A DNA stretch of 64,000 nt from NCBI GenBank assembly GCA_003116975.1, contig BGKB01000010.1:62001-126000 (forward strand), in the 5' to 3' direction. Of the stretch, positions 3,445-62,423 are shown one piece after another. The translations under genes and the position numbers were made by a program. Position 1 is the first letter of the stretch. Each line of letters starts with the position of its first letter. Below the pieces are notes generated by a model. It saw only the letters and a list, made by a program, of their open reading frames with translations, had not been told where the DNA came from and did not search any database. The stretch comes from Aurantiochytrium sp. KH105 (lineage: Eukaryota; Sar; Bigyra; Thraustochytrida; Thraustochytriidae).

Positions 3445-3470
3445 GCTGCTGCTGCTGCTGCTGCTGCTGC
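3445..3470. repeat. (GCT)n trinucleotide microsatellite
   Basis: Uninterrupted GCT run in gene-free DNA. Confidence 0.95.
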
Positions 3471-45445: not shown

Positions 45446-48241
45446 CTAGCAACAATAGCACATGGAGGCCGGCGGCGAGTCTGGTGAAATGGGTTCATCG
45501 AGAACAAGACGCGCAGGCGTCACCCGAGCCGTATTTTGTGAGCCCTTGCGCAGCGATCCTTGGGAGCCTTGCGCCCGGGACGGACGACGTTCTTTCCCGC
45601 TGGCACCTTCCACCTGGCTTGCTTGTCGCTCCATGCTGCCTTTACGCGAGGGAAGCCGCTCAGTGCTCTTTATACCACTGCCTTTGGAAGCTGCCGATGA
45701 ATGTTTTGCGGCTGCACCTGACGAGGAAGCATCTCGTTTAACGATTGCCTCTCCGCTTCGAGTTGACCCGGTGCCTGAAGGTACCTTGTTGAGACGGCGT
45801 TTCGAGCTGTAATTCAGATTGAGTTGGCCCACACAGTACTTTGACATTGCTTGAATGTGTTTTTCGGTGTGCCCTTGATCTCGAAACTCGGATGTCGCAT
45901 CACCCCCTGCATGCCAATGAATTCTTGCGGCTCCACCAGGATGTTCATCTGCAAATGCTGTCAAATCGTACACCTTGCCCTCCACAATAACGTAGCAGTC
46001 GCTCGTCTTGCCATGCTCCTGTACCATTTCCGGCGTGAACAGTTTTTTTCGCTGCAAGGAAGCTAAAGACAGCGTCGAGCCATCCAGTATAAAGGTTGTA
46101 GATCGAGTCGCAAAGCTTCCTTGGTGCGACACAGTGGTTGCATCGGCAATAGAGGATGCAGAGGGACGCAGCACAAGAGATGCCTTTGCTTCAAGATCCC
46201 CAGGATCCAGCACAGGAATCGGCAGAAGCCGATTTTTTAAGCTGCCGCTTGGCGATTGTGGAATTTGCGAAGCATTCATCGATGACGAAAGAGATCGAGT
46301 TCGAACAGAGGATCTCTCGCTTGGCATGTTAAGAGTCCTTGCACTTGCACTCTGCGCGAGCACTTTCTCCCTGGGGGCACTTCCTAGCTCAACGAGGCTT
46401 CGACTGGTTGCAAGTGTCGACATCTTTATGACGCCGGCATCCTCAGAATTAGCGTCAAGACCGTGCTCTTCCGAGATGTTCTCCGAGATTGTAGGTTGAG
46501 ACGTGAGCCCCGTGTTGCGCCGACTTTCGTAAGCTTGTTCCGCTCCCGTATCAGATGACAAATCTTCTTGATGCTCTCGAAACGATGTGACAATTGGCAA
46601 GTGCCGACGTGAGGAAAAGCTCATATTCAAGTGGCCAATGCAATACTCTTGAAGGCTTTCGATATGCTTGTTGCCGTGGCCCTGCTCGCGAAACACGCCT
46701 GTAGCGTCACATCCCGCTTGCCACTGGATAATGGAATCCCCGCCAGGATGAAGTGCCGCAAAATGAGTGAGATCGTACACGCGCCCCTGAATTGCCACCC
46801 ATGCGTCTTTAGGGCGATCATGTGCCGCAACGTCTGCCATTGTCAAAAGACGCTTTTTTCCTGATGGAGAGCGAGTCATGTTGACCTGCACACTCTTTAA
46901 TGACCCTGATTGACGAAGGTGAACCTTGTCTTCACCTATTGCCCCTGTTGATGCTCGCCTTGGCGTCTGTCCCACAGTCCCTGCAGTATTCAATTCATAA
47001 GACTTTCGTCGTGTTTGGCGCTGAGGCGAAGCTTCAGTCTGGCAGACGCGTCCCACGCAGTACTTTTCAAGGACTTGAAGCTGATGCTGTCCATGGCCTT
47101 GTTCCCGGAACGCAGCAGTGCCGTCCATTCCAGCCTGCCAAGCAATATTTGCAGCACCTCCAGGGTGGATACTGGCAAACTCTGTCACATCATACACCCG
47201 TCCCTCTACAATTACCCAAGCATCGTCTGGGCGGTCATGCTCGCTGACTTCTTGAGGCGTCCAAGAGTTCATGATTGGCGAAAGACACTCGCGGTCCTCA
47301 GGGGTAACGTCTTGATTGGGTCGCTGAGCTTGCTCAAGGAGAGAGCTTGAAGTTTGCAGAGATGGGGTGAGATTTTCTCCGTGGTCCTCGTCAGGGCTCT
47401 GCGGTCCATTATCACTGCTTCCACCACTTGAAGCGGCGCGCACTGATTCTAGGAACTTCTTTGTCTCTTCCATCTTGGATTCTGATTCGCTGGACAGCAA
47501 GCTCGATCGCCGGCGCGTCGTGTTGAGATTAAGATATCCAATGAAATACCTTTCCAGCGCCTGGATCTGGTCGTAACCATGACCCTGCTCGCGAAAGACC
47601 TGCGTTGCGTCAGTTCCAGCATTCCAGGTGATTATCCCACTGCCGCCAGGGTGTTTGTCTGCGAATTCAGTCACGTCATAGACCTTGCCTTCAAGAGCAA
47701 TCCACGCGTCACGTGGTTTGTCGTGCGCTTCAATATCGCTTTGCGTCCACAATTTTTTGCTCGTCGAGGTGCCGCTTGTTGCAAATGATTCAACAGATCT
47801 TCGGCCGACAGATTCGCCTCCGCCACGAATGCTTAGGGAGTCCACGGAGCCGCGACGTCTCATTTCTCCGTGCTCCCGAGGAAGACTGCTTATCGATGGG
47901 CGTCTCGAAGTCGGAAGCGTTGGCGCGGAGGTCACAAGTCCAACGCAAAACTTTTGAAGAATGTGCAATTGCTTCTCGCCATGGCCTTGCTCCTCAAACG
48001 CTCTGGTTGCATCGCTTCCCGCGTGCCATGTGATATTTGCAGTACCACCAGGATGAATTTCTGCAAACTCGATCAGATTGTACACATGACCGTGCACAAT
48101 GACGAGACATGCCTCTGGGGAGTCGTGCTCGGCAACTTCAGCTTCCGTCCACTTGCGCTCGACTTCCATGGTGTTTGCTAGCGTCTTTGTCCCCTCGACG
48201 CTGCTATCGCCCTCCTCCGTCTTGGTCTGAGCCGTCTCCAT
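45446..48241 (-). CDS. Five tandem cytochrome b5 domains with a C-terminal Cys-Tyr-Cys-Cys
   Basis: ATG 48241 (Met-Glu-Thr-Ala-Gln) has an A at -3 and G at +4 and gives 931 residues; an in-frame ATG at 48391 would add 50 unremarkable residues. Five cytochrome b5 domains have axial histidines in His-Pro-Gly-Gly at residues 63, 197, 359, 498 and 767. The second haem histidine follows exactly 24 residues later in Gln-Gly-His (87, 221, 383, 522, 791), the canonical spacing. Each unit starts Trp/Leu/Phe-Thr-x-x-x-Val/Ile-x-x-His and ends with a Leu/Met-x-x-Tyr/Phe-x-Val/Ile-Gly segment. Linkers are Ser/Arg-rich; the one before domain five is about 190 residues. No transmembrane helix is visible; the protein ends Met-Cys-Tyr-Cys-Cys, which could be prenylated or palmitoylated. 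A multi-haem electron carrier for membrane desaturases or hydroxylases is the likely role. Confidence 0.92.
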   Translation of the reverse strand: METAQTKTEEGDSSVEGTKTLANTMEVERKWTEAEVAEHDSPEACLVIVHGHVYNLIEFAEIHPGGTANITWHAGSDATRAFEEQGHGEKQLHILQKFCVGLVTSAPTLPTSRRPSISSLPREHGEMRRRGSVDSLSIRGGGESVGRRSVESFATSGTSTSKKLWTQSDIEAHDKPRDAWIALEGKVYDVTEFADKHPGGSGIITWNAGTDATQVFREQGHGYDQIQALERYFIGYLNLNTTRRRSSLLSSESESKMEETKKFLESVRAASSGGSSDNGPQSPDEDHGENLTPSLQTSSSLLEQAQRPNQDVTPEDRECLSPIMNSWTPQEVSEHDRPDDAWVIVEGRVYDVTEFASIHPGGAANIAWQAGMDGTAAFREQGHGQHQLQVLEKYCVGRVCQTEASPQRQTRRKSYELNTAGTVGQTPRRASTGAIGEDKVHLRQSGSLKSVQVNMTRSPSGKKRLLTMADVAAHDRPKDAWVAIQGRVYDLTHFAALHPGGDSIIQWQAGCDATGVFREQGHGNKHIESLQEYCIGHLNMSFSSRRHLPIVTSFREHQEDLSSDTGAEQAYESRRNTGLTSQPTISENISEEHGLDANSEDAGVIKMSTLATSRSLVELGSAPREKVLAQSASARTLNMPSERSSVRTRSLSSSMNASQIPQSPSGSLKNRLLPIPVLDPGDLEAKASLVLRPSASSIADATTVSHQGSFATRSTTFILDGSTLSLASLQRKKLFTPEMVQEHGKTSDCYVIVEGKVYDLTAFADEHPGGAARIHWHAGGDATSEFRDQGHTEKHIQAMSKYCVGQLNLNYSSKRRLNKVPSGTGSTRSGEAIVKRDASSSGAAAKHSSAASKGSGIKSTERLPSRKGSMERQASQVEGASGKERRPSRAQGSQGSLRKGSQNTARVTPARLVLDEPISPDSPPASMCYCC

Positions 48242-48904
48242 CGTGGCGTGCGTGTTTGGCTGAAGGCGAATCAAATGTGAACTGCGACACGGGGATGCGT
48301 TGAACTTTGGATCAATACTACCTGGCTGAACCCAGGAATGTGCTGTTAAGCCTATACCACAACGAGACTGGTGCCCGCGCGCCTCGATCATTTTGAGTCA
48401 GCCAGCTTGTGACTCTTTTATAAAAAATCGCGTCTGACTCTGAAATGTGAGTGGATGGACGATTCTTGCAGCGGCGTCAGCCAGCTCGATCCGAAGCGAG
48501 AATGGAAAGGTTCGGGGAAAGGAGATACGAGGGAAGGAGGTAGGGGGTGGGAAGGGGGAAGGGAAGGGAAGAAATTGGAAGAACGAAAAGTTGAGGAAGA
48601 AGAAGAAGGAGATCGAGGAGAACAAGAAAAAAGGAGATCAAAGCTGATAATTATGACGATGAGAAAAACATATAAGCAGGAGGAAGCTCGCAAAACATGT
48701 TTACGATGGCCAGCCTTACCGCGCACATTGCGGGCGCATTCACATCTCCCAACCGACTTGCAGTAGTTGCTCCAACCTTTTCCCTTCTTTTCAACCGTGG
48801 GAACCGTCCGAAGAACCACTCATATGTGTACACACCTCAATATCCGCTATTACGTCTTGCAATATCAAGTTATCACAGCAGCACCCCGATGAACGGCACT
48901 GGGC

Positions 48905-49190: not shown

Positions 49191-52100
49191 ATGGGCGGCT
49201 CGGCGCCCGAAGAGGGGCCCCGCGCTGGCCCCGTGGAGCCACGAGACTGCGGCCACGGAAGGCAACGCCGTCTTGGGGCGTGCACGGCGTGTCGAGCCGC
49301 AGCAGCGGGTGTGGTCGTCGAGCAACAAGGCCAAAAACTTGGTCTCACGACTCAACAAGCCTTGTCTGCGAAATTGAGAGTGACGAGAGCAGTACATGCT
49401 GCTCTCGATGACGAAGACGCACGCTATCGACGTGAAGAGATCGAGAGCAAAGGTTTCCGTCGTGATCTCGTTAAAGCCACCTCCGTCGCGGAGGCGGCGG
49501 TCCTTCTCGAGGGCCACAGACAATCCCAACACAATAGAAAAAGAGTCGGCTTGGAGACCGGAGCGGACACTTCTTCGAGCACCCAAAGCATCAACGAAGC
49601 AGCATACAAGGAGACAGAGATTCTTGACGATACAAGCTTCCAAGATCTTTCAGAGTTTCGCACATGGCTCCATGAGTCTGGCATTGACACGCTACATTGG
49701 GGTCTCGCCCGAACAAAATCTTCCGCAAGTTTATTTCGAGAAATCCAAAACAAAACGAGCGTGCTTGTCATTGAGGCCGCAGATGGCGACTCGTTCAGAA
49801 TCTTTCGTCTACTGCGCGTCGTGCGAGCGAGGGTAAAGCAGGAGATTGAGCGCGGTCGTATTCGGTACCTTGTCGAGGCTTCTCAGGAACTCGGTGAAAC
49901 AGGACAGCTTCGGTACAGAAACATGCTATTGTCTTCGATGATGCGCTACGGTGAAAATGCATTCAACGCAGCAAGACGTAGCGTCGAGAAGGAAATGCAA
50001 AACATTAATACCGTTCGCGGAAGATGCATTCCTCGCCGCGCCATCACCGCCAAGCGGGACAGCCCAAGAGTCTGCGTCGAGGATCTCGAGTCTCCATCCT
50101 ACCCGGGACTACTAACACGATATATCCTTGTAACCGTAGACGTAGCTCTGGATCGCAGACTTCCTGATGCCGACTTTTGCACCGTGGAGTATCTCCCAAC
50201 GATGCACATTGCGACGAAACATTATTGGAAGTGGAGAACGCGGGCCGAGGTCGCTCAGATTGTCAACGGGAAAACGTCCCGGTCAGCACCGTCAACAGCT
50301 CATCGCCGGAATCTTTTGCTGGGCGATGCGACCGAGTCCACCTCGGCTCTGCTACCTGGAACCGAGAAGCCTTTCTTCTGGAGTCTGTATGACGACGACT
50401 TCGAAGAAGCTTCTGACTCTGACGACCTCTATATTCCATTCAGTCGGCTCCGGCGCCACATGCGTCAGTGGGGTCTCACAGAAAATGAAATCTCCGATCT
50501 TTTGCAGCAGATCGAGGATGTACTGCGCGACGAAAGTCTTCTCTCCAAATCGGACTTTAAGGAGAAGCTGGCAGATCCAATCACGGAGCTCATTGTTGCT
50601 GATCAAGACAGCCTCTCGTCGCGAGGCCTGGGCAACGAACATTATCAGGTGCTCAAAAATCTCTTTCCCAATGCCAGTCGAATTTTTTCGAGAATTCTGC
50701 ATGGTGGATTCTCTGGATCCTTCGTCCTTCAGGCCCAGGCACGATACTGCGATGGGTCGCAGGGAGACCCCACGGTCGTGAAACTAGACCGAAGAGACCT
50801 CATGCGCGATGAAATCCAGCGCTTTCGAGCCTTGGCGCCGTACATGGGAGACTGCGCCCCCGCGATTCTGCAAACCGACGTCGAGGGCTCCAACTCTCTC
50901 CTTGGCGGGATCAAGTTTGAGCTGGTTGGTGCTGTGTGGATGCTTCCAGATTTTCGATCAAACCTGCTCAATAGTGGTGCGGCGCAGCCTCTCAGCACAT
51001 TCAAAAAGCTATTCATGCATGAAAGCGCCGAGGAGGAGCGTGCGCGCGTCGAACATGCGCTTGACAAGGCCCGGGTTTCGAGCTCGCACGTTCTCGCAAG
51101 CCATACTTCGGATAAGTTTCTCACGATGCAGACAGAGACCCAGGTTGCGCGCTCGCCCTCCTCGCCGGCTTCCATCGCATCGCCAATGACCGGTCCGATG
51201 TCTCCCACATCGGAGGACGAGGAACCGCGGTCAGCCCTGGACGCCAGATCTCCAAAGGAGGTGAGCAAAGGAACGAATCTTGTCTATGGCGAGGTCTATC
51301 AGGTCCTCAAAGAGGTTTTTGGCGAAATCATGCGCACCACCACGCTTTCTTCCAAAGAAACAATCTCGTGTAGTCTCTTGGACGTCTACAAAATAGACAA
51401 GTACATTGGCCGCTTGCTCGAACCACCTGCAGTCCCGGACTTGACCGGTGCTGGCGCCGCGGGCCTCCCTGACTGGGCCCAGCTTGACCCGACGGGGTCC
51501 GGTAGAGCGCTTCTGCAACGTCTACTCGACAAGATCGATCGACAGACTTACCCTTATGAGATGGGTCTCGTCCACGGAGATCTCAATGGAATGAACATTC
51601 TCATTGACTCTCACAACATTGTCTGGGTCATCGATTTTGCCTTTTCCGGACGTGGTCACGTTCTGACGGACATCGCAAAACTGGAATCCTGCGTTCTCTT
51701 TGAGTACACCCAACCGCGCTCAAACGCCGAGTATGAAGCACTGCAAGAGGTTGCAGACATCCTCATTCAAGTCGGGGACCTCCGTGAGGTCGTCTTTAAC
51801 AGTCGCTTTGACATGCAAACGGATGCCGCGCCAACTGACCAGCTCGCTAGAGTAGCCTTTGCCTGGAAGGCCATCAAGCGTCTGCGCATGTACGCGGCAA
51901 ATTATTGCGACACAGATCCAGGGCCAGCGCAAATGCTTGTGGCAATGTTACACAATGCCGCTCGGGCGCTCCGCTTCACAGATATCAAGGACAAGCGTCT
52001 TCCCTTCTTTGTCGCGACGAGCTGCGCACAGCGGCTCTTAGATTTCATGGAGACGAACAGGGGCTCTATCAAAATTCCTGCTCGAGCGCACAGCGAAGCG

Positions 52101-55100
52101 GCCTCGAGGCATAAGCCCATGAACGCAAGTCTTTCCGCCAATCAGATAAGGTACGAGAAACATCGCTACTTTCACGACGTCCGGGTCCGGGAATCTTACA
52201 TTCTTGACCTTTTCACGCGAGAGCCAGTTAACATACTGGAACAAACAGTCGAGCTACAAATGATCGAAGGGAGCTCTCGTGAAAAGGTCATGCGTGAAGT
52301 GGCCAACATGGACGAGATTCAGGCCCAGAGACGTCTTCGAAAACGTCTCGACGCATTACGCGGCGATATTCTGGGTTGCACTGCCGACGAAGGACTGGGA
52401 GGTTCGTGGCCGGCTTCCGCCGTGAATGATGAAGATAACGGTCACGCGCGCTTCACAAGCGCGCTGCAAGTGCTTGGAAACCCTCGCGATGAAGGCCATC
52501 GTGTTCTCTTGGGCGGCGCTGCATCGGGCAAGTCCTGCCTTATGCGCAAGATCCTTGTTTCAATGGGTCATGATCTTGCCTCAGATGGCCACGACGTCAT
52601 TCCCATTCTCATTCTAATCATTGAACTTGGACGTCTCATGACAGAGCGTAAGCTCACCTCCGAGGATGATCTTCTTGATGCTTACTTTGTGAGCACCTTT
52701 GGAGAGGGCAGCGCGCGTCTTGCATTCTTCCGGCAGATGCGCAAAGAAGACGCACTGTGCTATCTCTTTGATGGTCTCGATGAAGCCGGCGACCATAAGC
52801 CCGCCATTGAGCGCTACCTAGCTGGCCTCGTGGACCATGAGAGACGCATCATCATTTCCTCTCGCGAGACAGGCTTCAACGAGACGGCCTTTCGAAGCTT
52901 TCAATTTCTTCAGGTCATGCCACTTACGGACCAAATGCAAAGTCAGATTGTTGAAATGCGCCTCGGGAGTGACCACCCACGTCTCCTCACTATTCGCAGC
53001 GAGCTACGAAAACCTCAGTACGCTGAAATTGCCCGCAACCCGCTCATGCTGTCTCTGCTCGTGTCTCTTCTGGCGAACAAGGCCAACTCTGCTTCGCAGT
53101 CCGCGAACGGCGAGCGCCCGCGAAGCAATCAAGGCATCCTTACGCGCTCGTACCTGTACGAGCGCGCTGTGGCGCAACTTTTGCACCATGGATCAATGGC
53201 AAAGTTTGGAATGCGCAGAGGCGCAGACGACAAGCACGTGCAGCGTTCGATCGAAACGCTTGCTTCCAAGATAAGTTATGGGTTTCTGAAATCTCTTGCG
53301 TTCACCGCGCAGTCTTTGCGCACGCGGGACTTTGGGCCAGACGTACTTAATCGTGTCGCTGAAACCTATGTGGCGGACCCGGTCTACTTTTCATCTGAAG
53401 TCATGGCCAAGCCTCTCGCCTTGCAAGAGGAAGTTTTTCGCGTCATCGAAGTCTTGCAGGGCGCCGTGTACTCGGGTCTCTGCGGTCTGTTTGCGACGAG
53501 CAGAGTCTCAGTTCAACCGAACGCAGCCGCAGAGGGTTCTGGATTGACGACCTCACAAAGTAGCCCTCAGCAGGTATTGCGCTTCGTCCATCTTAGCTTC
53601 CAAGAGTATTTGGCAGGCTTATTCATTGTTGACCATTTACAACAAGCTCTCCGGAGCACAAAGGATGGAGGCGAGAAACCTTTTTGCGAGACAATCAAAT
53701 CACTGCTTTGTATTTGCCCCGAGCAGGAAACATGGGGCCATTTGCACGACCCTTGGTGGCAGGTAACTCTTGCAAGCATGGCTGGTTCCATGCCGCCTCG
53801 CGCGTTTCTTGCGTTTGCGAAATGCATTCTATCGTGGGACGATTCCTCGGGGAGCAACGTTCTGCTCTGTGCAGAGCTTCATGCTGAAGCAGCAGCGTCA
53901 GAATCTCTCGAAGGCGCTCGCGACGTGGGAGCGGAGGCACCGCGGTCGCAGGTGGAGGCTTTAATCAAGAGCAGATTCTCCGACTATATCAACGAGGAAG
54001 AGCTGGTCGACGCACTAACGCATCCTTCCCGCAACCTTCAGCTCATGGCGCTCGCGGAGGTTCACAAACTATACGACTCCCGAAAGGCAGCGTACTCGAT
54101 CATGTTTGGCCCTGGCATCGATGAGACGACTGACCGAGCCCCGTTGCTCCTATTGCCTTGGTACCGCCGCGCTTCTGCTGCCTATGCCTTGAGTCATCTA
54201 GCTTCCGTCAAGAACGATGAAGTTATCATCGACGTTCTTCTCGGGCTTTGGTCCGACGAAAGCGGCCAAGTTCGACGCGCGGCGGTCGAGGCCATCGCAG
54301 CGCTCCAGGCCGAGTCGCATAAGCTCGTCATCGATGAACTCCACCGTCAACTGCACGATGAGGTCGAGTCTGAGAATGGTCATGAACTCGTTGCCGCTCT
54401 CCGGGTTCAACATCCGCGCATCATCGAGGATCTTCTCACGATCGCATCTGTCGACGAGAGCGGTGCAAGCTCGAGCATCAGCAGCAATAGCCACGAGGCA
54501 CTTCTGTCACTTCCACTTACAGTGGAGCTTTTGTACACCTTGTGCCGTGCCGTTTCTCACGCTAAAATTCTCTCAGTGCGGAGCTGCGCGGCGCGGATTC
54601 TCATCTCACGCTGTGCACCTGAAGCGGGCGACGAGGCTGCACCCTTGAATGAGACGCTCGAGACTGCCTTTATTTCCTGGCTTGAACATCCAGAGGTCAC
54701 TTTTTGCATGAGCGCCGCCCAGATGCTTGCGCAAAGTACCTTTAAGTCATTCCGCATCGCCCAAGCACTTACGACGCTCCAAAAACGAGTAGCCAGTCTA
54801 CCGGGAGATCACTCAGACTTATGGGATGCTGCTCTCGTCGCCCTTGTCGCGGTGGCGCAGCCTGCAGATGACCTCGTGCATGATGCCCTGCTCTTTGGAC
54901 TGCACGCGAAGGCTTCCACGACACGTGGAGAATGCATACAGCTTTTGCAGCAGCTCCTTCCCCAAATTTTGACCCAAAGCCAAGATTTCGACGAAAGTCA
55001 GGAAAAGAGAAGTCTCGCGACTTCGGAACCGATCGAGGAGTTGTCCTCTGCACAAGCGTCACAGGAAGACAGACAAGCTAAAAATTCTCGAGTTCCACGG

Positions 55101-58100
55101 AAGAACGCATCTGGAGGCCCTTCTCGAGTGAAGCAAACGGTTCGCTTGGCGAGATACGCGGAAAGATTGCGCGATATGGCCCAAGAGGATCCGGACGCAA
55201 ACGTCGCTCGACAGGCATACGAAGTCGGCCAAATCATTCCGCAATTTGGATCCGAGATTGCGCACTCTCTCTTTGCTGACGATAGAGCGCCTCCTAAAGT
55301 CCGTTCCGCCGCGCTCAAGTCAATCCTCCAGAGAGCCCCGAACCAAGCTGCGATCGCTCAAATGTTGCCGATATTATCAGAGTGGATTGCGAATGGACCG
55401 CGTGGTCTTGTAGACGCTGCAATGCGAGCGATGGTGAGCCTGAAAGAGGGTGGGCCACTCCACTCTGCTCTCGCAAAAGGTACACTGCTCTCGTGGCAGC
55501 AGGCATGCAAACTTGTGGAGACGCTTGAACAAAATGCGCATAGTGTCAAGCGACTGCTTGATCAGCACCAGATGGACATTGTTCTCGAGTCTTTGGTCAA
55601 GGCCTATACTGCGCAAAAACAGGAGCAGACTGCGGCGCAAGACATGGGCGATATTGCAGAATTTGCCTTTTGTGACGCCCTTAGCGGACTTGGAGACAGT
55701 GGCTTTGCTTTCTCTGTTTCTGAGTCTTGGCTCGACTGTTTTGCCGACAGTGACGTGAACCTTCAAGTCGCACTAGCAACAATGTTGAGTGATGCGTGCG
55801 TTTGCTCCCTCGAGGAAACTATTCTGGGCTATATAATGAATGCTGAGACCGACAAACGCGTTCGAGCTTCGCTCGCGCTTGCTTTGCATCGCCTGAATCG
55901 ATGGAAGTCTGAATCTTTGCAATCGGCAATGGAGGCATGGCTCTTAGAAGAAGATGAGAGCATGCAGCTTGCCGCCATTGATGTTTTATGCGAGATTGGC
56001 GACATTGGCTCTCGCCTCGTTCGCTTGTTGCCATCGCTCTTGCATGGGGCGAGCTTCAGAATTGGACCTGCTGTGCAAAAAGCGAGAGCCCAACGTGCAG
56101 GTCTCCTCACGCGAAAGGACACGAAAGCACGCATGCGCATGGCCGTCCTCTCGCACCTGCGCATGCATAGTGACACGAATTCTCTTGCGGATACAGTGGA
56201 AGGCAAGGTCGCTCTGCGTGAAAGCATAGCGCACGGTGTTCAAACGCTTATGTTGCACCCCAAATTTGAGCTTGCGGAAACTGATGTCTTGCGCTGGCTG
56301 GATGACGCTGAAAATGTCAAACTCGTGACCTGTGAGATGCTCGCCAAATCGACCTGCACGGAAGCTGCGCGCACAAAATCTGTGGCTGAAAAGCTCTTCG
56401 AGATTTTGTCAGCAATACCCGACGGTCTGAATAATGAGTCCAAAACGAGAGATACTGCGCAAGCTGATGTTTCTCGAGTCCTTTGTAATGCTGCAAAAGT
56501 CGCACTTGTCACGAGGTTTCGCAGATTCCTGCCTTGGACTGCAGCCTCGGAACGACGACTTGCGACTGGATCAGCACAAGTGCGTGAAGCATTGCTGAAA
56601 ACGTTGGTTCTTCGGGACTGGGTGCAGGATCCTGCGCTCTTCAACGCAATGTTTCCAACCTTGCGCTCGTCTTGTCTCAATGACGATGAACGCGAAGTTC
56701 GGATAAGTGCTGTCGCGCTATGTACAGACTGGCTTCGCGCTGTCAAAGACACTCGCATGGAGCCTGCTTTGGCCGAAGCGCAAGCAGATAATGTTGCCCG
56801 GATGGAAGGGTGCATCGAAGATGTTCTTTTATCATTTGATCGTGAGCCTTCAGAGCTTTCGGCAGTAGTCGACCTCATGCGAGGGTCCACCATGTCCAAA
56901 GCCATCTTCATGGCCATGATCAAGCTGGTGCGTGAGTGCCCGGACCAGAATGTAAGCGCGCGCTGCAGACTTGCTCTCTCACAGGTGAAAAGCCCGCCTC
57001 CTTTCCAGGCAAGTGACCTTCTCAAGTTGGACACCTCCGGCCACGAGTCAAAGCTACTGTGGCTCACGCTCTTGAGAAAATTTCGACGGAATCCGGCATT
57101 TACGGAGATAATTTCCGACGCAGAAGTGGTCATCTACCTTCGCAGTTTTGTCGCCCCAGAGACTGCGCGTGCATATTCGCCATCAACTGCGCTTCTAGTC
57201 ATCGAAGTCTTGCACTGCTGCACGGATCTTCGCATCACGCTTGAGTCGGTCGACATTCTTAACTATCTTGACGTAGCGGCAACAGCCTACGCAGAGGCCA
57301 GCGATGAGCGGATCCTTCGTATTCTGCTGCAGTACTTGCTTGTCAGCGAGAATGTCCGACTGGATGCCGCGGTTGTTGGGCATATAATCGATCTCGCAGG
57401 GTCAGAGAGCACAGACGTCACGCTCGAAACAGATCGGTCGCGCAACATTATTCACTTCTTTGCGCAGTATCAGATCAAAGATGCAGCGGAGACCAGCTCT
57501 CTGCTGGAGGTCATGGAGGAGCACGAAGTTGCCGCATCTTTTCTCTTTGAGCCTGTTTTGAGTTTCTTGCGGCGCGAGCGGACTCACCGGTCATCGGACG
57601 AAGTACACAAGTCCCAAGCTGCCCTTCGTGCGCAGATTGATCAGCTTGCAAGAACAAAGCGGACGCTTGAAGCGACGTATCTAAGCAAGGAGATCAGATT
57701 CGGTTTTGAAATGCACGACACGCTCGGCGTCACATCGAAGCAACTCGCCCTTAAAGGCCGTGGAAAGATCAAAGAGCAGCGCGTGCAGAGGCAGGCGCTC
57801 AAAGACATGCGGGAAGCTGAGTGGGAGCAAGCACGCGCAGAATGGTTTCCGCCCACTCTGGTGGATCAACATCTTGAATTCATCAACGTACCTGCTTCGC
57901 TCGAGTACCAGCAAAGTCGGCTTTCCACAGCATCAACGGGAGTCTTTCTCAATGCTATACCCGATGAGATGGCCACTGAGCGACAGATCTTTGCACAAAA
58001 TGTGCTTCCGGAGATACGGCGTCGTCTCCGGGCCATGGGCGTGCCCGTCGCGCTGCACTTGAGCAATCCAGAAGCGCTCGGGATGTTCTTGGAGCCGATT

Positions 58101-60839
58101 TCTTCTTTGACCTCATCTTCGACGTCTAACTTTTCGTCAGCTTCAGGAGCGAATTTTGCTGCGGCCAATCTGGTCCGAATAGCGCAACGAACAAATCTTG
58201 CTCGTGAGTGCGCACCTTTCATGGTCTGCTTTCTAGGGGCGCGTTATGGGCAGCCGCAGCATAAGGCGCAAATTGATGACAGCATTGAAATGCTGGAGAG
58301 GGGCGCCTGCTTCCTTGGGCGACCTAACATGCCAACGAGCGCACTTTGCTATTTTCGCGACGCTACCTTTTACCAAGATCTTGCAGCGCATCTAGAGATG
58401 GAATCCATTTTCCAGCAAGCCACGCCACGGAGAAGCACAAAGGGGGATGCCAGGGAGAAAGGAAATGCGAGCAGCAATTACAATGCCATAGAACTTTCCT
58501 TTAGCGACAGCGAGAAGCCGGCGCTCGCAAACCTCGAAAAAGTGTACGCTGGTGAAGACAGTACTGACATTCGTCTCAAGTCGCGCCAAGAACGTGAAAA
58601 ACAGGCGATTCTCTCACATCCGTATGTAAAGTCGACCAACGTACGTCTTGCTGCGCCCGTCAAGTTGCAGAACAGTGGTCATGTCTCACCAAATTGTCTC
58701 CTGGACTTCTTTGCGCAAGTGACAGAAGATCTTCTGGCCCGCATCTTGGGTGAATTTCCCGTGAGGACTTCTCATCGCGCCAAACACACCGCGGGTGCAG
58801 TGTGCGGGTCAGAGGAGCTTGCCGAAGAACTCCCCTTCCGTCTCACTGAAGAGCAGCGCGCCCATGAGCACTACCTATGGGAGCACTCGCAACTTTTACG
58901 AAGCGATACGGAATTTGGTGGCTTCTTGCCGCGCACGCGCCAGCATATTTACCAGGACCTCCAGCACTTGCTTACAGAGGACGGGAGCTCTGACAACAAG
59001 TTGCGAGCGGAGCGCCGGACCGTCAAGAATCCCAAGTTCTGGACTAAGGATGAGCATCTGGGTAACAGCGCAATCCTCCTTACGGCTGAACGCTATCAAG
59101 GGAAGACGACGGTACTTGCAACATTCACCGACTGGTACAGAAGTACATGTGCGCCGTCGCTGCCACCGATCATTTTCCACTCTTGCAGGGCATCTGCAAT
59201 GTCAGGTGACCTCACTTTAATCTTGTTGCGCTTGGGTGTTGAGCTGCTCAATGTGTTTCATCCTCGCCTGGACCTAGAGGATTGGTCCCCCCCTTGCGGC
59301 TGCGCTCTGAACCTTGAATCTGTGCGGACCTGGTGGCATGGGCTTCTCTGTGAGGTTTCGAGCCTTGCGTTGTCAGATCATCGACGGCCTGTTCTCATCA
59401 TCGACGGTCTCTTCGAGGTGATGGATTCTGCATCTGTTGAGAGCAAGGAGATCTGGATGGGGCTGCTTCCGCAAAGGTATGGCGGCCGCTGTCCGCCAGG
59501 GGTCTCCATGATTCTGAGCGCATCGGCTTGCAGCAATGCGAAAGCTCTCGCGCGGACAAACAAGCGGCAGCACTTTCCCTATCGTGAACTACAGGTGGGA
59601 TCGCTCAGCAAAGATGAACAGACTATTCTTCTCACCGAGGCGCTTGCACGCTATCGCATGCGTCCCACAGAGAACCTGTTATTAAGAACCTCGCGAGCTG
59701 GCGCGAACTTTGCGCCTGCCAACCTCGACATTTTCGCGCGGCATGTGGCTGGCCTCCACGAAGGATGCACGCAAGTCGAGACAAGCATTGAACATTTGCT
59801 TGGCCTCTTGGGGAACGACGAGCTCGAGAATAATCGAGAGGAAGGCGGTGGGAACGCGCCGGACGGGAACGCGATTGTTGCAGATCGAGATCGAGCTCAC
59901 ACGATCCTCGACTCGATTTTAATCAGACTCGAAGTCGAATTTGGAGTATCGCTGTGTCGGTCAATACTGACATGTCTCGCTCTCACTGGACACATGGACG
60001 AGTCAGATCTCTTTGAATTTTCTTCGCAGTTCTCAGAGACCATCTCCCCGAAAGAATGGCGTCGCCTGTGCTTGCAGCTGGACGAAGTGGTCATTTGTGT
60101 TTCGGTTTGTGCACAGAACGAAATTGCGCCCTGGCAGCGTCGCGGATCGTCTTTGCGGAGCGTTAACTCGCAGAGTTCTCGCTCTTCGCGCGGACCTGAG
60201 GCGCGACGCATTAGTGACCTGGCTTCCCAGGACTTCTCGGCACGCAGAAAGTCCGCGGATGGAGGCGCGGGCAGGCGCTATGTGCGGCACGTCTCGGCAC
60301 CAGAAGAACTCATGCGGGCACTGCACGCCGAAACACACTCGGTACGTGTACTCAGTCTCCGATCTGAATGGTTCAAGCGAGGCGTCCTGCTTAGGTACTA
60401 TAATACCTCAGGAACGGCAAAGTGTCCTCAGCTTGCGGAGTTCTATGAAAGACTCTGTCGATTTTGGACAAGTAAACTCGACGTGTGGTATGCAACGTCA
60501 GCCCAGATCCCACTTCTCACGCATCGCGCTGCCGTGATGCGCAAGATTGTTTATTATGCGCTTTGCGCGTCGGACCCGCTCTCTTGTATTCGGCGCACGC
60601 TGCTATCGCCCAAGACGCTCGCTGCAATGGCAGCCCAAATTACGTGGTATGACGCCATGTCCGCCATGGCAGAGGACTTTGCGCGTGCTCTTGACTTTTT
60701 ACAGCAGGGCCACGATAGTAGGTTTACGGAGGAAGATGCAAAAGAGTGCGCGGCCAAGCTTGCATTTGCGCGCGAACGCATCAGCGCGAACGTTGACGAA
60801 ATCTCCGCAAACCCGGACTGCGTTACTGAATTACTATAA
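49191..60839 (+). CDS. Giant kinase-NACHT-HEAT-DUF4062-STAND protein (3,882 residues)
   Basis: One uninterrupted frame from ATG 49191 to TAA 60837. Residues about 140-340 resemble a Nudix-like module with a degenerate box (Ala-Ala-Arg-Arg-Ser-Val-Glu-Lys-Glu) and a Ser-Tyr-Pro-Gly-Leu motif. Residues about 495-960 form an aminoglycoside-phosphotransferase-like kinase with Gly-Phe-Ser-Gly-Ser near 504, Lys531, His-Gly-Asp-x4-Asn (795-802) and Ile-Asp-Phe (Asp815), similar to the TCAD9 type. A NACHT NTPase follows: Walker A Gly-Gly-Ala-Ala-Ser-Gly-Lys-Ser (Lys1114), Walker B Leu-Phe-Asp-Gly-Leu-Asp-Glu (1192-1198), Phe-Gln-Glu-Tyr-Leu near 1471. Helical HEAT-like repeats run about 1,600-2,780. 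A DUF4062-like segment (2,915-3,015; Phe-Leu-Gly-Ala-Arg-Tyr-Gly) precedes a second STAND NTPase (Lys3305, Asp3405). Probably a nucleotide-driven signalling switch. Its stop abuts the stop of the convergent kinase gene. Confidence 0.88.
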   Translation: MGGSAPEEGPRAGPVEPRDCGHGRQRRLGACTACRAAAAGVVVEQQGQKLGLTTQQALSAKLRVTRAVHAALDDEDARYRREEIESKGFRRDLVKATSVAEAAVLLEGHRQSQHNRKRVGLETGADTSSSTQSINEAAYKETEILDDTSFQDLSEFRTWLHESGIDTLHWGLARTKSSASLFREIQNKTSVLVIEAADGDSFRIFRLLRVVRARVKQEIERGRIRYLVEASQELGETGQLRYRNMLLSSMMRYGENAFNAARRSVEKEMQNINTVRGRCIPRRAITAKRDSPRVCVEDLESPSYPGLLTRYILVTVDVALDRRLPDADFCTVEYLPTMHIATKHYWKWRTRAEVAQIVNGKTSRSAPSTAHRRNLLLGDATESTSALLPGTEKPFFWSLYDDDFEEASDSDDLYIPFSRLRRHMRQWGLTENEISDLLQQIEDVLRDESLLSKSDFKEKLADPITELIVADQDSLSSRGLGNEHYQVLKNLFPNASRIFSRILHGGFSGSFVLQAQARYCDGSQGDPTVVKLDRRDLMRDEIQRFRALAPYMGDCAPAILQTDVEGSNSLLGGIKFELVGAVWMLPDFRSNLLNSGAAQPLSTFKKLFMHESAEEERARVEHALDKARVSSSHVLASHTSDKFLTMQTETQVARSPSSPASIASPMTGPMSPTSEDEEPRSALDARSPKEVSKGTNLVYGEVYQVLKEVFGEIMRTTTLSSKETISCSLLDVYKIDKYIGRLLEPPAVPDLTGAGAAGLPDWAQLDPTGSGRALLQRLLDKIDRQTYPYEMGLVHGDLNGMNILIDSHNIVWVIDFAFSGRGHVLTDIAKLESCVLFEYTQPRSNAEYEALQEVADILIQVGDLREVVFNSRFDMQTDAAPTDQLARVAFAWKAIKRLRMYAANYCDTDPGPAQMLVAMLHNAARALRFTDIKDKRLPFFVATSCAQRLLDFMETNRGSIKIPARAHSEAASRHKPMNASLSANQIRYEKHRYFHDVRVRESYILDLFTREPVNILEQTVELQMIEGSSREKVMREVANMDEIQAQRRLRKRLDALRGDILGCTADEGLGGSWPASAVNDEDNGHARFTSALQVLGNPRDEGHRVLLGGAASGKSCLMRKILVSMGHDLASDGHDVIPILILIIELGRLMTERKLTSEDDLLDAYFVSTFGEGSARLAFFRQMRKEDALCYLFDGLDEAGDHKPAIERYLAGLVDHERRIIISSRETGFNETAFRSFQFLQVMPLTDQMQSQIVEMRLGSDHPRLLTIRSELRKPQYAEIARNPLMLSLLVSLLANKANSASQSANGERPRSNQGILTRSYLYERAVAQLLHHGSMAKFGMRRGADDKHVQRSIETLASKISYGFLKSLAFTAQSLRTRDFGPDVLNRVAETYVADPVYFSSEVMAKPLALQEEVFRVIEVLQGAVYSGLCGLFATSRVSVQPNAAAEGSGLTTSQSSPQQVLRFVHLSFQEYLAGLFIVDHLQQALRSTKDGGEKPFCETIKSLLCICPEQETWGHLHDPWWQVTLASMAGSMPPRAFLAFAKCILSWDDSSGSNVLLCAELHAEAAASESLEGARDVGAEAPRSQVEALIKSRFSDYINEEELVDALTHPSRNLQLMALAEVHKLYDSRKAAYSIMFGPGIDETTDRAPLLLLPWYRRASAAYALSHLASVKNDEVIIDVLLGLWSDESGQVRRAAVEAIAALQAESHKLVIDELHRQLHDEVESENGHELVAALRVQHPRIIEDLLTIASVDESGASSSISSNSHEALLSLPLTVELLYTLCRAVSHAKILSVRSCAARILISRCAPEAGDEAAPLNETLETAFISWLEHPEVTFCMSAAQMLAQSTFKSFRIAQALTTLQKRVASLPGDHSDLWDAALVALVAVAQPADDLVHDALLFGLHAKASTTRGECIQLLQQLLPQILTQSQDFDESQEKRSLATSEPIEELSSAQASQEDRQAKNSRVPRKNASGGPSRVKQTVRLARYAERLRDMAQEDPDANVARQAYEVGQIIPQFGSEIAHSLFADDRAPPKVRSAALKSILQRAPNQAAIAQMLPILSEWIANGPRGLVDAAMRAMVSLKEGGPLHSALAKGTLLSWQQACKLVETLEQNAHSVKRLLDQHQMDIVLESLVKAYTAQKQEQTAAQDMGDIAEFAFCDALSGLGDSGFAFSVSESWLDCFADSDVNLQVALATMLSDACVCSLEETILGYIMNAETDKRVRASLALALHRLNRWKSESLQSAMEAWLLEEDESMQLAAIDVLCEIGDIGSRLVRLLPSLLHGASFRIGPAVQKARAQRAGLLTRKDTKARMRMAVLSHLRMHSDTNSLADTVEGKVALRESIAHGVQTLMLHPKFELAETDVLRWLDDAENVKLVTCEMLAKSTCTEAARTKSVAEKLFEILSAIPDGLNNESKTRDTAQADVSRVLCNAAKVALVTRFRRFLPWTAASERRLATGSAQVREALLKTLVLRDWVQDPALFNAMFPTLRSSCLNDDEREVRISAVALCTDWLRAVKDTRMEPALAEAQADNVARMEGCIEDVLLSFDREPSELSAVVDLMRGSTMSKAIFMAMIKLVRECPDQNVSARCRLALSQVKSPPPFQASDLLKLDTSGHESKLLWLTLLRKFRRNPAFTEIISDAEVVIYLRSFVAPETARAYSPSTALLVIEVLHCCTDLRITLESVDILNYLDVAATAYAEASDERILRILLQYLLVSENVRLDAAVVGHIIDLAGSESTDVTLETDRSRNIIHFFAQYQIKDAAETSSLLEVMEEHEVAASFLFEPVLSFLRRERTHRSSDEVHKSQAALRAQIDQLARTKRTLEATYLSKEIRFGFEMHDTLGVTSKQLALKGRGKIKEQRVQRQALKDMREAEWEQARAEWFPPTLVDQHLEFINVPASLEYQQSRLSTASTGVFLNAIPDEMATERQIFAQNVLPEIRRRLRAMGVPVALHLSNPEALGMFLEPISSLTSSSTSNFSSASGANFAAANLVRIAQRTNLARECAPFMVCFLGARYGQPQHKAQIDDSIEMLERGACFLGRPNMPTSALCYFRDATFYQDLAAHLEMESIFQQATPRRSTKGDAREKGNASSNYNAIELSFSDSEKPALANLEKVYAGEDSTDIRLKSRQEREKQAILSHPYVKSTNVRLAAPVKLQNSGHVSPNCLLDFFAQVTEDLLARILGEFPVRTSHRAKHTAGAVCGSEELAEELPFRLTEEQRAHEHYLWEHSQLLRSDTEFGGFLPRTRQHIYQDLQHLLTEDGSSDNKLRAERRTVKNPKFWTKDEHLGNSAILLTAERYQGKTTVLATFTDWYRSTCAPSLPPIIFHSCRASAMSGDLTLILLRLGVELLNVFHPRLDLEDWSPPCGCALNLESVRTWWHGLLCEVSSLALSDHRRPVLIIDGLFEVMDSASVESKEIWMGLLPQRYGGRCPPGVSMILSASACSNAKALARTNKRQHFPYRELQVGSLSKDEQTILLTEALARYRMRPTENLLLRTSRAGANFAPANLDIFARHVAGLHEGCTQVETSIEHLLGLLGNDELENNREEGGGNAPDGNAIVADRDRAHTILDSILIRLEVEFGVSLCRSILTCLALTGHMDESDLFEFSSQFSETISPKEWRRLCLQLDEVVICVSVCAQNEIAPWQRRGSSLRSVNSQSSRSSRGPEARRISDLASQDFSARRKSADGGAGRRYVRHVSAPEELMRALHAETHSVRVLSLRSEWFKRGVLLRYYNTSGTAKCPQLAEFYERLCRFWTSKLDVWYATSAQIPLLTHRAAVMRKIVYYALCASDPLSCIRRTLLSPKTLAAMAAQITWYDAMSAMAEDFARALDFLQQGHDSRFTEEDAKECAAKLAFARERISANVDEISANPDCVTELL

Positions 60840-62423
60840 TGAATTGTCACTGCCCTGGTGCTGCGGCGCTCCCGGCGACGTTGGGCTCCGGTATTGTAAT
60901 ATATTTTGCTTGGCAATAATGACAGAGCCCAGCGTGCGGACAGAGTTCACCTTGTACGCAGAGATGGCCGTGGCAATCTCCTTTTCTGATACTTCAATGG
61001 GACCCTCAACCTCCGGAAGAAGAAATTCGGCACGACCATAATCTGTACTCCAGGGATGTGCCGAGATCTGCGCAAAGGATGCCCGCTTGGAGACATCTTT
61101 TTCTAGAATAGACTTCAAGAGGCCAACGACATCGTGATCACTTTCCCTGGTCGTAACACCGGCGGATCCGAGGCGTGGTGGGTAGTTTACATTTCCTTCC
61201 TGAATCAGGTTGATGAGCGCTTGCGCAGTATCAGCAACGAAGGGGGGAGTGCCGAAGATCATCATGAACAAGGTCGCGCCAACTGCCCAAATGTCAGCAA
61301 GCTTGCCATTGAAGGCCTCCCCAGAGCACATCTCGGGCGCAAGAAAGGCCATTGTGCCATCTGTCCGATTAATCATGGGATCTTCGTCATCTCGAAAAGC
61401 CTGCGCAGCGCCAAAGTCGGACAGCAACAGGCGATCCGTCTTGTCGACAAGCAAGTTGCTTGGCTTGATATCCTTGTGAATGATGTTGTGCTTGTGCAAA
61501 TAGTCCATAGCAGAAACGAGCTGGGCCATTAGTCGTCGGGCTCTGCACTCTGGAAGAGGAGATGCCTTGCTGTGATCTGGCATGAGCGCTCCTCCATCCA
61601 CAAAGGACGTGACCATGTACGTCTTGGGGTGACTTGGGTCATCGATTACCTCTATGAGAGGCAAAATGTTGGGGTGACGCAAACGCTTCTGGATGGCAAT
61701 TTCTCGCTTCAGGTCCGTCCTTGATGCATCGCTTGTGCGCGGACCGAATTGTGCACGTTTTAGCCTTTTCCGATCGACTATTTTGATGGCACATAGCATC
61801 CCCGTTTCATGTCGTGCTCGAACAACGACCCCAAAGCTACCTGTGCCAATCACAGCGCCAAGCTTGTAGCCATTGACTTTGATCACGTTTCCGTCCTCAT
61901 CGGCGGTGACTTCATTCGAAGTAGTGATTTGCGTCTGCAGCGACGGTCCCATCTGAGGTGAGAAAGCGCCACGCTTGATCATGGATGACCGCCGACGTTC
62001 TGCGAGCGGATCAGCATCACTCGCAGCTCGATTCTCAAGAAAAGATTGCGTGGACGTTTCGGGAATCTCATTACTGCCGCTGCCACTGCTGCTGCTCGAG
62101 TGCGGTGCCGACGGAGTCGGCGAGTCTCCGCTGTCAGCGACTAAATCAAGTAATTCATGCGAAAGCTTTCGGTATTGTGCGATGAGTTTGCGCGCTTCGA
62201 TTAGATTGTCAACTTCATCTGCCCCAGCTGACTTTTGTGTTTCTCCTCGCATGAACTCAAGAGCTCGGCGCACAAGGTCACTTTCTGCAGCCGTCGCCAC
62301 CTTTAAACGAAGCACAGAGCTCGTAGATGGTCTCGGAACCACGACAGATGAACGCGCGCTTGCATTTGTCTGTTCGCCAAAGCTGATCTCGTTGCCGAGC
62401 GGCAAGCTCGCAGATCCCCCCAT
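60834..62423 (-). CDS. CaMKK-like Ser/Thr protein kinase
   Basis: Starts at ATG 62423, 529 residues. The N-terminus Met-Gly-Gly-Ser-Ala-Ser fits an N-myristoylation signal. The kinase domain spans about 186-460 with Gly-Thr-Gly-Ser-Phe-Gly (193-198), Lys214, Glu241, His-Lys-Asp (316-318, in place of His-Arg-Asp), Asp-Phe-Gly (336-338) and Ala-Pro-Glu (362-364). A basic insert after the catalytic lysine (about 220-238) matches the Arg/Pro-rich insert of calcium/calmodulin-dependent kinase kinases, and Leu-Ile-Glu-Val-Ile-Asp-Asp-Pro also fits. The C-terminal Ile-Glu-Val-Ser-Glu-Lys-Glu-Ile and a basic hydrophobic helix resemble the CaMKK regulatory/calmodulin segment. Such kinases activate AMPK/SnRK1-type kinases. 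The TAG stop (60834-60836) is directly next to the TAA of the giant gene on the other strand, so the transcripts must overlap at their 3' ends. Confidence 0.9.
   Translation of the reverse strand: MGGSASLPLGNEISFGEQTNASARSSVVVPRPSTSSVLRLKVATAAESDLVRRALEFMRGETQKSAGADEVDNLIEARKLIAQYRKLSHELLDLVADSGDSPTPSAPHSSSSSGSGSNEIPETSTQSFLENRAASDADPLAERRRSSMIKRGAFSPQMGPSLQTQITTSNEVTADEDGNVIKVNGYKLGAVIGTGSFGVVVRARHETGMLCAIKIVDRKRLKRAQFGPRTSDASRTDLKREIAIQKRLRHPNILPLIEVIDDPSHPKTYMVTSFVDGGALMPDHSKASPLPECRARRLMAQLVSAMDYLHKHNIIHKDIKPSNLLVDKTDRLLLSDFGAAQAFRDDEDPMINRTDGTMAFLAPEMCSGEAFNGKLADIWAVGATLFMMIFGTPPFVADTAQALINLIQEGNVNYPPRLGSAGVTTRESDHDVVGLLKSILEKDVSKRASFAQISAHPWSTDYGRAEFLLPEVEGPIEVSEKEIATAISAYKVNSVRTLGSVIIAKQNILQYRSPTSPGAPQHQGSDNSL

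What the first reader, a model, noticed from the sequence alone, without database searches (positions are those of the whole stretch)
49191..60839. 3,882-residue single-exon protein joining an APH-like kinase, a NACHT NTPase, HEAT repeats, a DUF4062 segment and a second STAND NTPase
Seen directly: kinase motifs His-Gly-Asp-x4-Asn and Ile-Asp-Phe, a complete NACHT P-loop and Walker B, and a TEP1/NPHP3-like DUF4062 and NTPase pair, all in one frame. Known: TCAD9-type kinase-like domains and STAND NTPases occur in prokaryotic conflict systems, and DUF4062-NACHT pairs in TEP1, NWD1 and NPHP3. Inference: a eukaryotic sensor with two nucleotide switches and its own kinase, perhaps in immunity, self-recognition or large RNP assembly. 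I know of no described protein with this order.
Basis: partly seen in the sequence, partly recalled or inferred. Interest (0 to 1): 0.92.

Follow-up and report, generated by a model that had tools for sequence, protein, structure and literature searches.

The report
Giant kinase–NACHT–HEAT–TEP1-like fusion protein
A eukaryotic microbe carries one huge gene that joins a kinase known from bacterial conflict systems, an immune-receptor-type molecular switch with a long repeat arm, and a second module related to the human vault protein TEP1; the parts look real, but what the protein does is not yet known.

Summary
In detail: 49191-60839 is one open frame of 3,882 codons with coding-like codon usage (best of six frames in 38 of 38 windows, residues 1-3800). 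Confirmed in order: an unnamed N-terminal domain; a full-length TCAD9 kinase-like domain with intact catalytic motifs; a NACHT switch with complete motifs; a HEAT-type solenoid; a diverged DUF4062; a diverged STAND NTPase of TEP1 type. Pfam misses the DUF4062; a profile of 16 bacterial TEP1-type proteins finds it (19.6 bits; at most 5.2 in 500 shuffles) and the NTPase (43 bits). Corrections: a 2026 preprint shows DUF4062 to be a TIR-like NADase family. Here the catalytic glutamate (E3036) is kept, but SSTF, DLRWG and a P-loop glycine are lost, so the second module is a weakened switch at best. TCAD9-STAND-repeat fusions already exist in bacteria, but this TCAD9 groups with Planctomycetota isochorismatase-TCAD9 proteins. 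Best reading: an NLR-like signalling ATPase using a bacterial-type kinase as output, with a TEP1-like scaffold or second effector. Expression, function and spread among eukaryotes could not be tested. New variant of a known kind.

The parts
49191..60839 (+). single open reading frame, 3,882 aa
49623..50237 (+). N-terminal domain of unknown family, residues about 145-349; weak Nudix-box-like stretch GENAFNAARRSVEKE at residues 254-268
   Evidence: nothing over cut-off in Pfam, no PDB match; AF2 uninformative, pLDDT 39.5; hhalign to Nudix 19.5 against null maximum 18.3 in 100 shuffles
50688..51971 (+). TCAD9 / APH-like kinase domain, residues 500-927: G-loop HGGFSGSF 504, K531 (VVK), HGDLNGMN 795, VIDF 813
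51042..51284 (+). insert of 81 residues (618-698), Ser/Pro-rich in part, inside the kinase domain; absent from 24 of 24 aligned bacterial rows
52503..52955 (+). first NTPase, NACHT, residues 1105-1255: P-loop GGAASGKS 1108, Walker B 1191, IIISSRE 1220
54108..57590 (+). helical solenoid of HEAT type, residues about 1640-2800 (repeats recognised at about 1657-1749 and weakly at 2216-2275; the rest inferred)
57936..58370 (+). diverged DUF4062 (TIR-like) domain, residues 2916-3060
58296..58298 (+). codon of E3036, the residue aligned with the catalytic Glu E1008 of human TEP1
   Evidence: E1008 from PMC13174449
58998..60110 (+). second NTPase, TEP1/APAF1-like STAND core with degenerate P-loop (AERYQGKTT, K3305; Walker B D3405) and following helical region, residues 3270-3640
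60111..60836 (+). C-terminal tail, residues 3641-3882; by eye like the helical part after the TEP1-type NTPase, but not significant; no WD40 recognised
   Evidence: (3.3 bits against shuffle maximum 5.8)
60834..62423 (-). neighbouring gene, ordinary protein kinase, tail-to-tail with a 6-nt overlap; not part of the protein

Best explanation
A giant NLR-like signalling protein of a eukaryotic microbe. Shown: one reading frame encodes [unknown N-terminal domain]-[TCAD9 kinase with all catalytic motifs]-[NACHT with complete motifs]-[HEAT-type solenoid]-[DUF4062 with catalytic Glu]-[STAND NTPase with weakened P-loop]. Inferred mechanism: at rest the solenoid folds back on the NACHT, which holds ADP. 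A ligand bound by the solenoid opens it; ATP exchange and oligomerisation gather TCAD9 kinase domains, which then phosphorylate each other, a partner protein or a small molecule. The C-terminal TEP1-like module either scaffolds the assembly or, once clustered, adds NAD+ hydrolysis through its TIR-like domain. The first half matches the bacterial order TCAD9-STAND-repeats; the second half matches the TEP1/NWD1/NPHP3 order DUF4062-NTPase. I put the architecture at about 0.95, an NLR-like ligand switch at about 0.55, a catalytically active kinase at about 0.6, and an active NADase at about 0.2.
For: TCAD9 E 2e-30 over nearly the whole model. Alignment with 24 bacterial TCAD9 rows shows that the window protein keeps the glycine loop, VVK lysine, HGDxxxxN and DF. 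NACHT motifs complete. HEAT repeats. A profile of 16 bacterial TEP1-type proteins covers residues 3005-3634 with 47 bits, 5e-17 for one target (nearly the same); taken apart, DUF4062 19.6 bits (maximum 5.2 in 500 shuffles, 380 reported) and NTPase 43.0 bits (maximum 4.8, 290 reported), with this protein's first NACHT as runner-up at 17.4 bits. E3036 is one of 14 columns identical in 17 of 17 rows. The profile of that alignment, in which the window protein is 1 of 17 rows, finds human TEP1 (3e-50), Apaf-1 (8e-12) and the KpSwz NADase (3e-4) among solved structures. TCAD9 followed by a STAND-type NTPase and TPRs in 4 of 22 bacterial TCAD9 proteins scanned: L140, L141 5391-9632, L143, L144. One bacterial TCAD9 protein ends in a caspase domain (L145, Peptidase_C14 9e-20), which fits a conflict role. 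NADase activity of the DUF4062 family: PMC13174449.
Against: No functional data. The first NACHT alone is under Pfam's cut-off. DUF4062 is below Pfam detection; SSTF and DLRWG are lost; in the preprint only TEP1 of four purified human proteins was active, so an inactive domain is likely. The second P-loop lacks a nearly invariant glycine. The C-terminal tail is not recognisably TEP1-like. The structure model of the C-terminal part is of low confidence (mean pLDDT 57, pTM 0.41), and its fold matches are mostly generic AAA+/ORC proteins, with no TIR or TEP1 among the 50 listed of 777. No bacterial TCAD9 protein scanned carried a NACHT or DUF4062 at E<=0.01 (0 of 22), and the tree does not join this TCAD9 with STAND-fused ones. 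No ligand, partner or expression evidence; no second species.
Confidence: 0.5

Rival explanations
1. A TEP1/NPHP3-like scaffold for a large complex (vault-like RNP, cilium or metabolic assembly) in which the kinase and both NTPases serve assembly, not immunity.
For: The C-terminal module is of the TEP1/NWD1/NPHP3 type; in PMC13174449 NWD1, NWD2 and NPHP3 showed no NADase activity, which points to non-enzymatic roles; long solenoid and degenerate P-loop suit a scaffold.
Against: No WD40 or TPR arm recognised after the module; no TROVE or other vault-type domain among the nine Pfam families listed at E<=10; the TCAD9 kinase is catalytically complete.
Confidence: 0.25
2. A conflict-system protein whose output is phosphorylation of a small molecule or nucleotide rather than protein, as suggested for APH-type kinases of bacterial ternary systems.
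For: TCAD9 domain also matches APH; PMC7159879 (passages seen) proposes low-molecular-weight substrates for active APH-type kinases there; the closest bacterial TCAD9s all carry an isochorismatase-like domain (7 of 7, one under cut-off).
Against: Two of those relatives also carry a dual-specificity protein phosphatase domain (L211, L212), which fits a protein substrate equally well.
Confidence: 0.15
3. Two neighbouring genes joined only on paper: the TCAD9-NACHT-HEAT part and the DUF4062-NTPase part are separate transcripts or joined by an unseen splice.
For: The two halves have different nearest relatives; no cDNA is available.
Against: 11.6 kb without a stop, and in-frame codon usage right across the joint (windows from residues 2701, 2801 and 2901 score 26.5, 18.1 and 11.1, best of six).
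Confidence: 0.05
4. A decaying or recently assembled fusion without a selected function.
For: DUF4062 and second NTPase have lost motifs that are nearly invariant in relatives.
Against: No stop or frameshift in 3,882 codons; kinase and first NACHT motifs complete; E3036, K3305 and D3405 kept.
Confidence: 0.05

Closest known systems
TCAD9 (PF19974) proteins of Planctomycetota: isochorismatase-like-TCAD9, some with a DSP phosphatase
   Same: Closest TCAD9 domains: 27-28% identity to L210-L212; same fork in the tree, support 92/98; the same kinase motifs
   Different: No NACHT, HEAT, DUF4062 or second NTPase recognised; bacterial; P0001 sits on a long branch
Bacterial TCAD9-STAND-TPR fusions (L140, L141, L143, L144)
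   Same: Same order: kinase-like domain, STAND NTPase, superstructure repeats
   Different: NTPase of nSTAND6/AAA_16 (both under cut-off) or NB-ARC type and TPR instead of NACHT and HEAT; TCAD9 in another part of the tree, so the fusion seems to have arisen separately
TEP1 / NWD1 / NPHP3-type proteins and bacterial relatives such as L157
   Same: DUF4062 followed by a STAND NTPase; catalytic-Glu position kept
   Different: SSTF, DLRWG and a P-loop glycine lost; no WD40 arm recognised; preceded by 2,900 residues with a kinase and a second NTPase
NLRs and bacterial NACHT defence proteins
   Same: Effector-like domain, NACHT, C-terminal repeat arm
   Different: TCAD9 kinase as the domain before the NACHT; a second TEP1-like module at the end; no defence role shown
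Swarozyc (KpSwz) DUF4062 antiphage NADase
   Same: DUF4062 TIR-like family and catalytic Glu
   Different: Bacterial protein of DUF4062 plus an auxiliary domain (PMC13174449); no NTPase or kinase

Membership tests
TCAD9 (PF19974) | profile match over the curated cut-off (40 bits) across the domain | tested here: met
   106.7 bits, profile 6-428 of 429
TCAD9 (PF19974) | kinase catalytic motifs as in bacterial members | tested here: met
   G-loop, VVK, HGDxxxxN, DF aligned with 24 bacterial rows
vWA-MoxR ternary conflict system | neighbouring MoxR, vWA and VMAP genes | tested here: not met
   Pfam of six neighbouring ORFs shows none; the context is eukaryotic
NACHT/STAND signalling NTPase (NLR-like) | P-loop, Walker B and sensor-like motifs in a NACHT match | tested here: met
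   whole-protein score (two stretches) over the cut-off, first NACHT piece alone under it
NACHT/STAND signalling NTPase (NLR-like) | C-terminal superstructure repeats | tested here: met
   HEAT_2 2.5e-6, just over cut-off; alphaRep hit 4.7e-4
NACHT/STAND signalling NTPase (NLR-like) | ligand-driven, nucleotide-dependent oligomerisation | not testable with these tools
   needs protein
TEP1-type DUF4062-NTPase | DUF4062 followed by a STAND NTPase | tested here: met
TEP1-type DUF4062-NTPase | Pfam DUF4062 (PF13271) match | tested here: not met
   no match at E<=10
TEP1-type DUF4062-NTPase | WD40 or similar arm after the NTPase | tested here: not met
   chain ends about 240 residues after the NTPase region; no repeat family found at E<=1
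DUF4062 TIR-like NADase | catalytic Glu (TEP1 E1008) | tested here: met
   E3036, identical in 17 of 17 rows; register
DUF4062 TIR-like NADase | SSTF and DLRWG motifs (conserved in the TEP1-type rows aligned here) | tested here: not met
   NAIP in place of SSTF, and no DLRWG
DUF4062 TIR-like NADase | NAD+ hydrolysis | not testable with these tools
   needs an assay
Nudix superfamily (N-terminal domain) | Nudix box and fold | tested here: inconclusive
   hhalign probability 2%, score just over the null; fold model unusable

The most novel reading that the evidence does not exclude
A single-chain eukaryotic immune-type receptor that carries two outputs, a TCAD9 kinase taken from bacterial conflict systems and a TEP1-like TIR/NADase module, worked by two STAND NTPases of different origin in one polypeptide, possibly with an N-terminal Nudix-like domain that could read or remove the ADP-ribose made by the NADase.
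Probability: 0.12. Interest if true: 0.9.

Novelty: new variant of a known kind. Interest (0 to 1): 0.62.

Why it matters
TCAD9 is named for bacterial conflict systems. In the papers I could search, the term appears in four, two listed; the only eukaryotic mention seen is a 44-residue motif-finder match in a Plasmodium choline kinase, not a full domain. Here a full-length TCAD9 sits before a NACHT switch and a TEP1-type module, whose DUF4062 was reported only in 2026 to be a TIR-like NADase family. If expressed and conserved, the protein would tie kinase output, STAND switching and a TIR-like domain together in one chain, and would give a test case for how eukaryotes assemble immune-type receptors from bacterial parts. 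Its kinase and NADase activities can be assayed directly.

Tried and rejected
tblastn of the TCAD9-NACHT part against plasmids and phages and of the C-terminal part against plasmids: no match. TCAD9 alone at E<=10 against plasmids gave 42 records with weak partial matches (best listed 3e-2), several annotated as phosphotransferases, none covering 80% of the query. Viral contigs: no relative of the TCAD9-NACHT part, of the N-terminal domain or of the C-terminal part, and no match to the TCAD9 motif pattern.

Single-sequence AF2 of the N-terminal domain failed (pLDDT 39.5), so nothing is built on it. Nudix as its identity was tried and kept only as a weak idea.

Early guess that genes upstream of bacterial TCAD9 genes would be NACHT-HEAT proteins: rejected. 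The five upstream proteins picked and scanned are GAF-histidine kinases. Guess that P0001's TCAD9 descends from a bacterial TCAD9-STAND fusion: not supported by the tree (the clade test was not run). Relatives of the NACHT-HEAT stretch in the phylum of G001: only weak hits, 2 of 151 genomes. Chance ORF and two merged genes: judged unlikely on codon usage. No RNA family or tRNA in the window.

Full report
WHAT IS THERE. The frame 49191-60839 (+) runs 3,882 codons from ATG to stop. Trained on seven other long ORFs of the window, a codon score ranks this frame first of six in 38 of 38 windows of 300 nt covering residues 1-3800. GC3 is even. No genome is held for the window. Pfam of six neighbouring ORFs shows RabGAP-TBC, a protein kinase, a five-copy cytochrome b5 protein, PTP-like phytase repeats and a DUF2254 protein, and nothing for one: a eukaryote with long uninterrupted genes.

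KINASE. Residues 500-927 match TCAD9 at 2e-30 over 6-428 of 429 profile positions. In an alignment with 24 bacterial TCAD9 rows the window protein keeps the glycine loop, the VVK lysine, HGDxxxxN and the DF aspartate. An insert of 81 residues (618-698) is absent from all 24 rows. Bacterial TCAD9 was found with a motif pattern: 64 stretches in the genome collection, of which three encode a TCAD9 relative at E<1e-5. From there, genomes over the family cut-off were 20 of 400 (phylum of G001, Chloroflexota by record title), 10 of 246 (phylum of G008, Planctomycetota), 2 of 146 (G004, Myxococcota), 3 of 194 (G009, Verrucomicrobiota) and 0 of 198 (G006, Actinomycetota). The phylum names are my reading of record titles.

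BACTERIAL CONTEXTS OF TCAD9. I fetched 27 regions (17, 10) and scanned 22 proteins with a TCAD9 match by Pfam at E<=0.01 (2, 10, 10; L147 and L219 are under the TCAD9 cut-off). Four of 22 have a STAND-type NTPase and TPRs after TCAD9: L143 (NB-ARC 4e-9) and L144 (NB-ARC 1e-6), over cut-off; L140 (nSTAND6 2e-5) and L141 5391-9632 (AAA_16 5e-5), under cut-off. Seven have an isochorismatase-like domain before it (L210-L216; L215 under cut-off), and two of these also a DSP-type phosphatase after it (L211, L212). Four have a receiver domain at the N-terminal side (L146, L151, L152 over cut-off, L145 under), and L145 also a caspase domain at its end; in L141 10545-14624 a receiver match (under cut-off) precedes a second TCAD9-like copy. 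None of the 22 has NACHT or DUF4062. The five upstream neighbours scanned, chosen by position (L145, L146, L151, L152, L156), are GAF-histidine kinases. In the tree of 25 rows the window's TCAD9 falls with the seven isochorismatase-type rows (fork of 8 rows, support 92/98, short of the tool's star) and not with the STAND-fused ones; it is a long branch (1.91), so its place is provisional, and the clade test was not run.

FIRST SWITCH AND REPEATS. The NACHT (1105-1255) has its P-loop, Walker B and IIISSRE motifs; alone it scores 22.5 bits, under Pfam's 26.7. HEAT repeats are recognised at about 1664-1737 and weakly at 2216-2275; designed alphaRep proteins are the best PDB hits (4.7e-4). The rest of the solenoid to about 2800 is inferred.

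TEP1-LIKE MODULE. Pfam shows no DUF4062 and single-sequence PDB search no TEP1. I therefore built a profile from 16 bacterial proteins of the TEP1 type: L157, which runs to its contig edge and is DUF4062-NTPase followed by WD40-like repeats by eye, and 15 proteins from L220-L234. It matches residues 3005-3634 with 47 bits, 5e-17 for a single target. Split and rebuilt without the window protein, the DUF4062 part scores 19.6 bits against at most 5.2 in 500 shuffles (380 reported), the NTPase part 43.0 against 4.8 (290 reported), and the C-terminal tail 3.3 against 5.8, which is not significant. The cut limits for these pieces came from an alignment that included the window protein.

ACTIVE-SITE READING. 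The preprint PMC13174449 (abstract, sections 11 and 15 and passages seen) reports DUF4062 to be a TIR-like NADase family; human TEP1 needs E1008, and NWD1, NWD2 and NPHP3 were inactive as purified. In the PDB chain of TEP1 (11gz_A), E1008 is the second Glu of SVTEME (numbering set from R908 in the same chain). In alignment A1 this column is E3036 of the window protein and is identical in 17 of 17 rows. Against activity: SSTF reads NAIP, DLRWG is missing, and the NTPase P-loop reads AERYQGKTT, with Tyr in place of the nearly invariant glycine two before GK, although K3305 and D3405 are kept.

STRUCTURE. AF2 of the N-terminal domain alone failed (pLDDT 39.5). AF2 of 2890-3882 with 17 sequences gave mean pLDDT 57 and pTM 0.41; in the NTPase core (model residues 401-600) 16 of 20 ten-residue blocks are at 70 or more. 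Foldseek's best matches are archaeal and other AAA+ ATPases (2qen 3.3e-5), mostly ORC/Cdc6; Avs3, Dark and NLRP2 appear lower; no TIR or TEP1 is among the 50 listed of 777. This supports an AAA+/STAND core and does not test the DUF4062.

N-TERMINAL DOMAIN. Residues 145-349 have only one Pfam match, under cut-off (YicC-like_N, 0.053), and none in PDB. A stretch GENAFNAARRSVEKE aligns with the Nudix box; windows holding it are the best places in the whole protein, but only just over the shuffled null (19.5 against a maximum of 18.3 in 100). That similar domains occur in stramenopile proteins is my recollection, from no call.

HOW IT MAY WORK. Shown: the parts, their order and which motifs are kept. 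From knowledge of STAND proteins: a repeat arm senses, the NACHT switches by nucleotide exchange and oligomerises, and the flanking domain is the output. Inferred: TCAD9 is the output; the TEP1-like end is a scaffold or a second output. A scaffold without catalysis is the main rival.

LITERATURE. TCAD9 is described as associated with vWA-MoxR-VMAP in a figure legend of PMC10910872 (one passage). PMC7159879 (passages) reports a few active APH-type kinases and sporadic NACHT in such systems; the word TCAD9 is not in its main text. A search for TCAD9 gave 4 papers, 2 listed; the second, PMC11195610 (one passage), reports a motif-finder match to TCAD9 over residues 281-324 of Plasmodium berghei choline kinase, which reads as cross-matching of a kinase active site. 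Thraustochytrid + NACHT gave two papers, unrelated by title. PMC10907252 was seen in passages. Other papers were seen as search listings only.

CHANGES ON CHECKING.

VERDICT. The architecture is real and unusual; the mechanism is plausible but untested; it is a new variant of the STAND/NLR-like kind.

Noticed in passing
45446-48391 (-): 981-aa protein with five recognised cytochrome b5-like stretches (PF00173, E 1.9e-107).
   Followed up: no
32665-37812 (-): 1,715-aa protein with three PTP-like phytase stretches (PF14566, E 4e-140), a paladin-like repeat build (the name paladin is recalled).
   Followed up: no
60834-60839: The giant gene and a protein kinase gene on the other strand overlap tail to tail by 6 nt.
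   Followed up: no
25619-32443 (-): 2,274-aa ORF in a stretch of strong AT skew; not scanned for domains.
   Followed up: no
L157:3-4580 (-): Bacterial protein of at least 1,526 aa (runs to the contig edge) with the TEP1/NWD1 order DUF4062-NTPase followed by WD40-like repeats (repeats judged by eye); its first 700 residues match TEP1 chain 11gz_A at 3e-21.
   Followed up: partly
L211:2796-5048 (+), L212:4121-6499 (+): Isochorismatase-like domain, TCAD9 kinase and DSP-type phosphatase in one bacterial protein: kinase and phosphatase in one chain.
   Followed up: partly
L145:4562-7096 (-): Bacterial protein with a receiver-like match, TCAD9 and a C-terminal caspase domain (Peptidase_C14, 9e-20), downstream of a GAF-histidine kinase gene.
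   Followed up: partly
L146, L151, L152, L156: TCAD9 genes sit directly downstream of large GAF-histidine kinase genes; a receiver domain precedes TCAD9 in L146, L151 and L152 but none was found in L156, suggesting a two-component input.
   Followed up: partly
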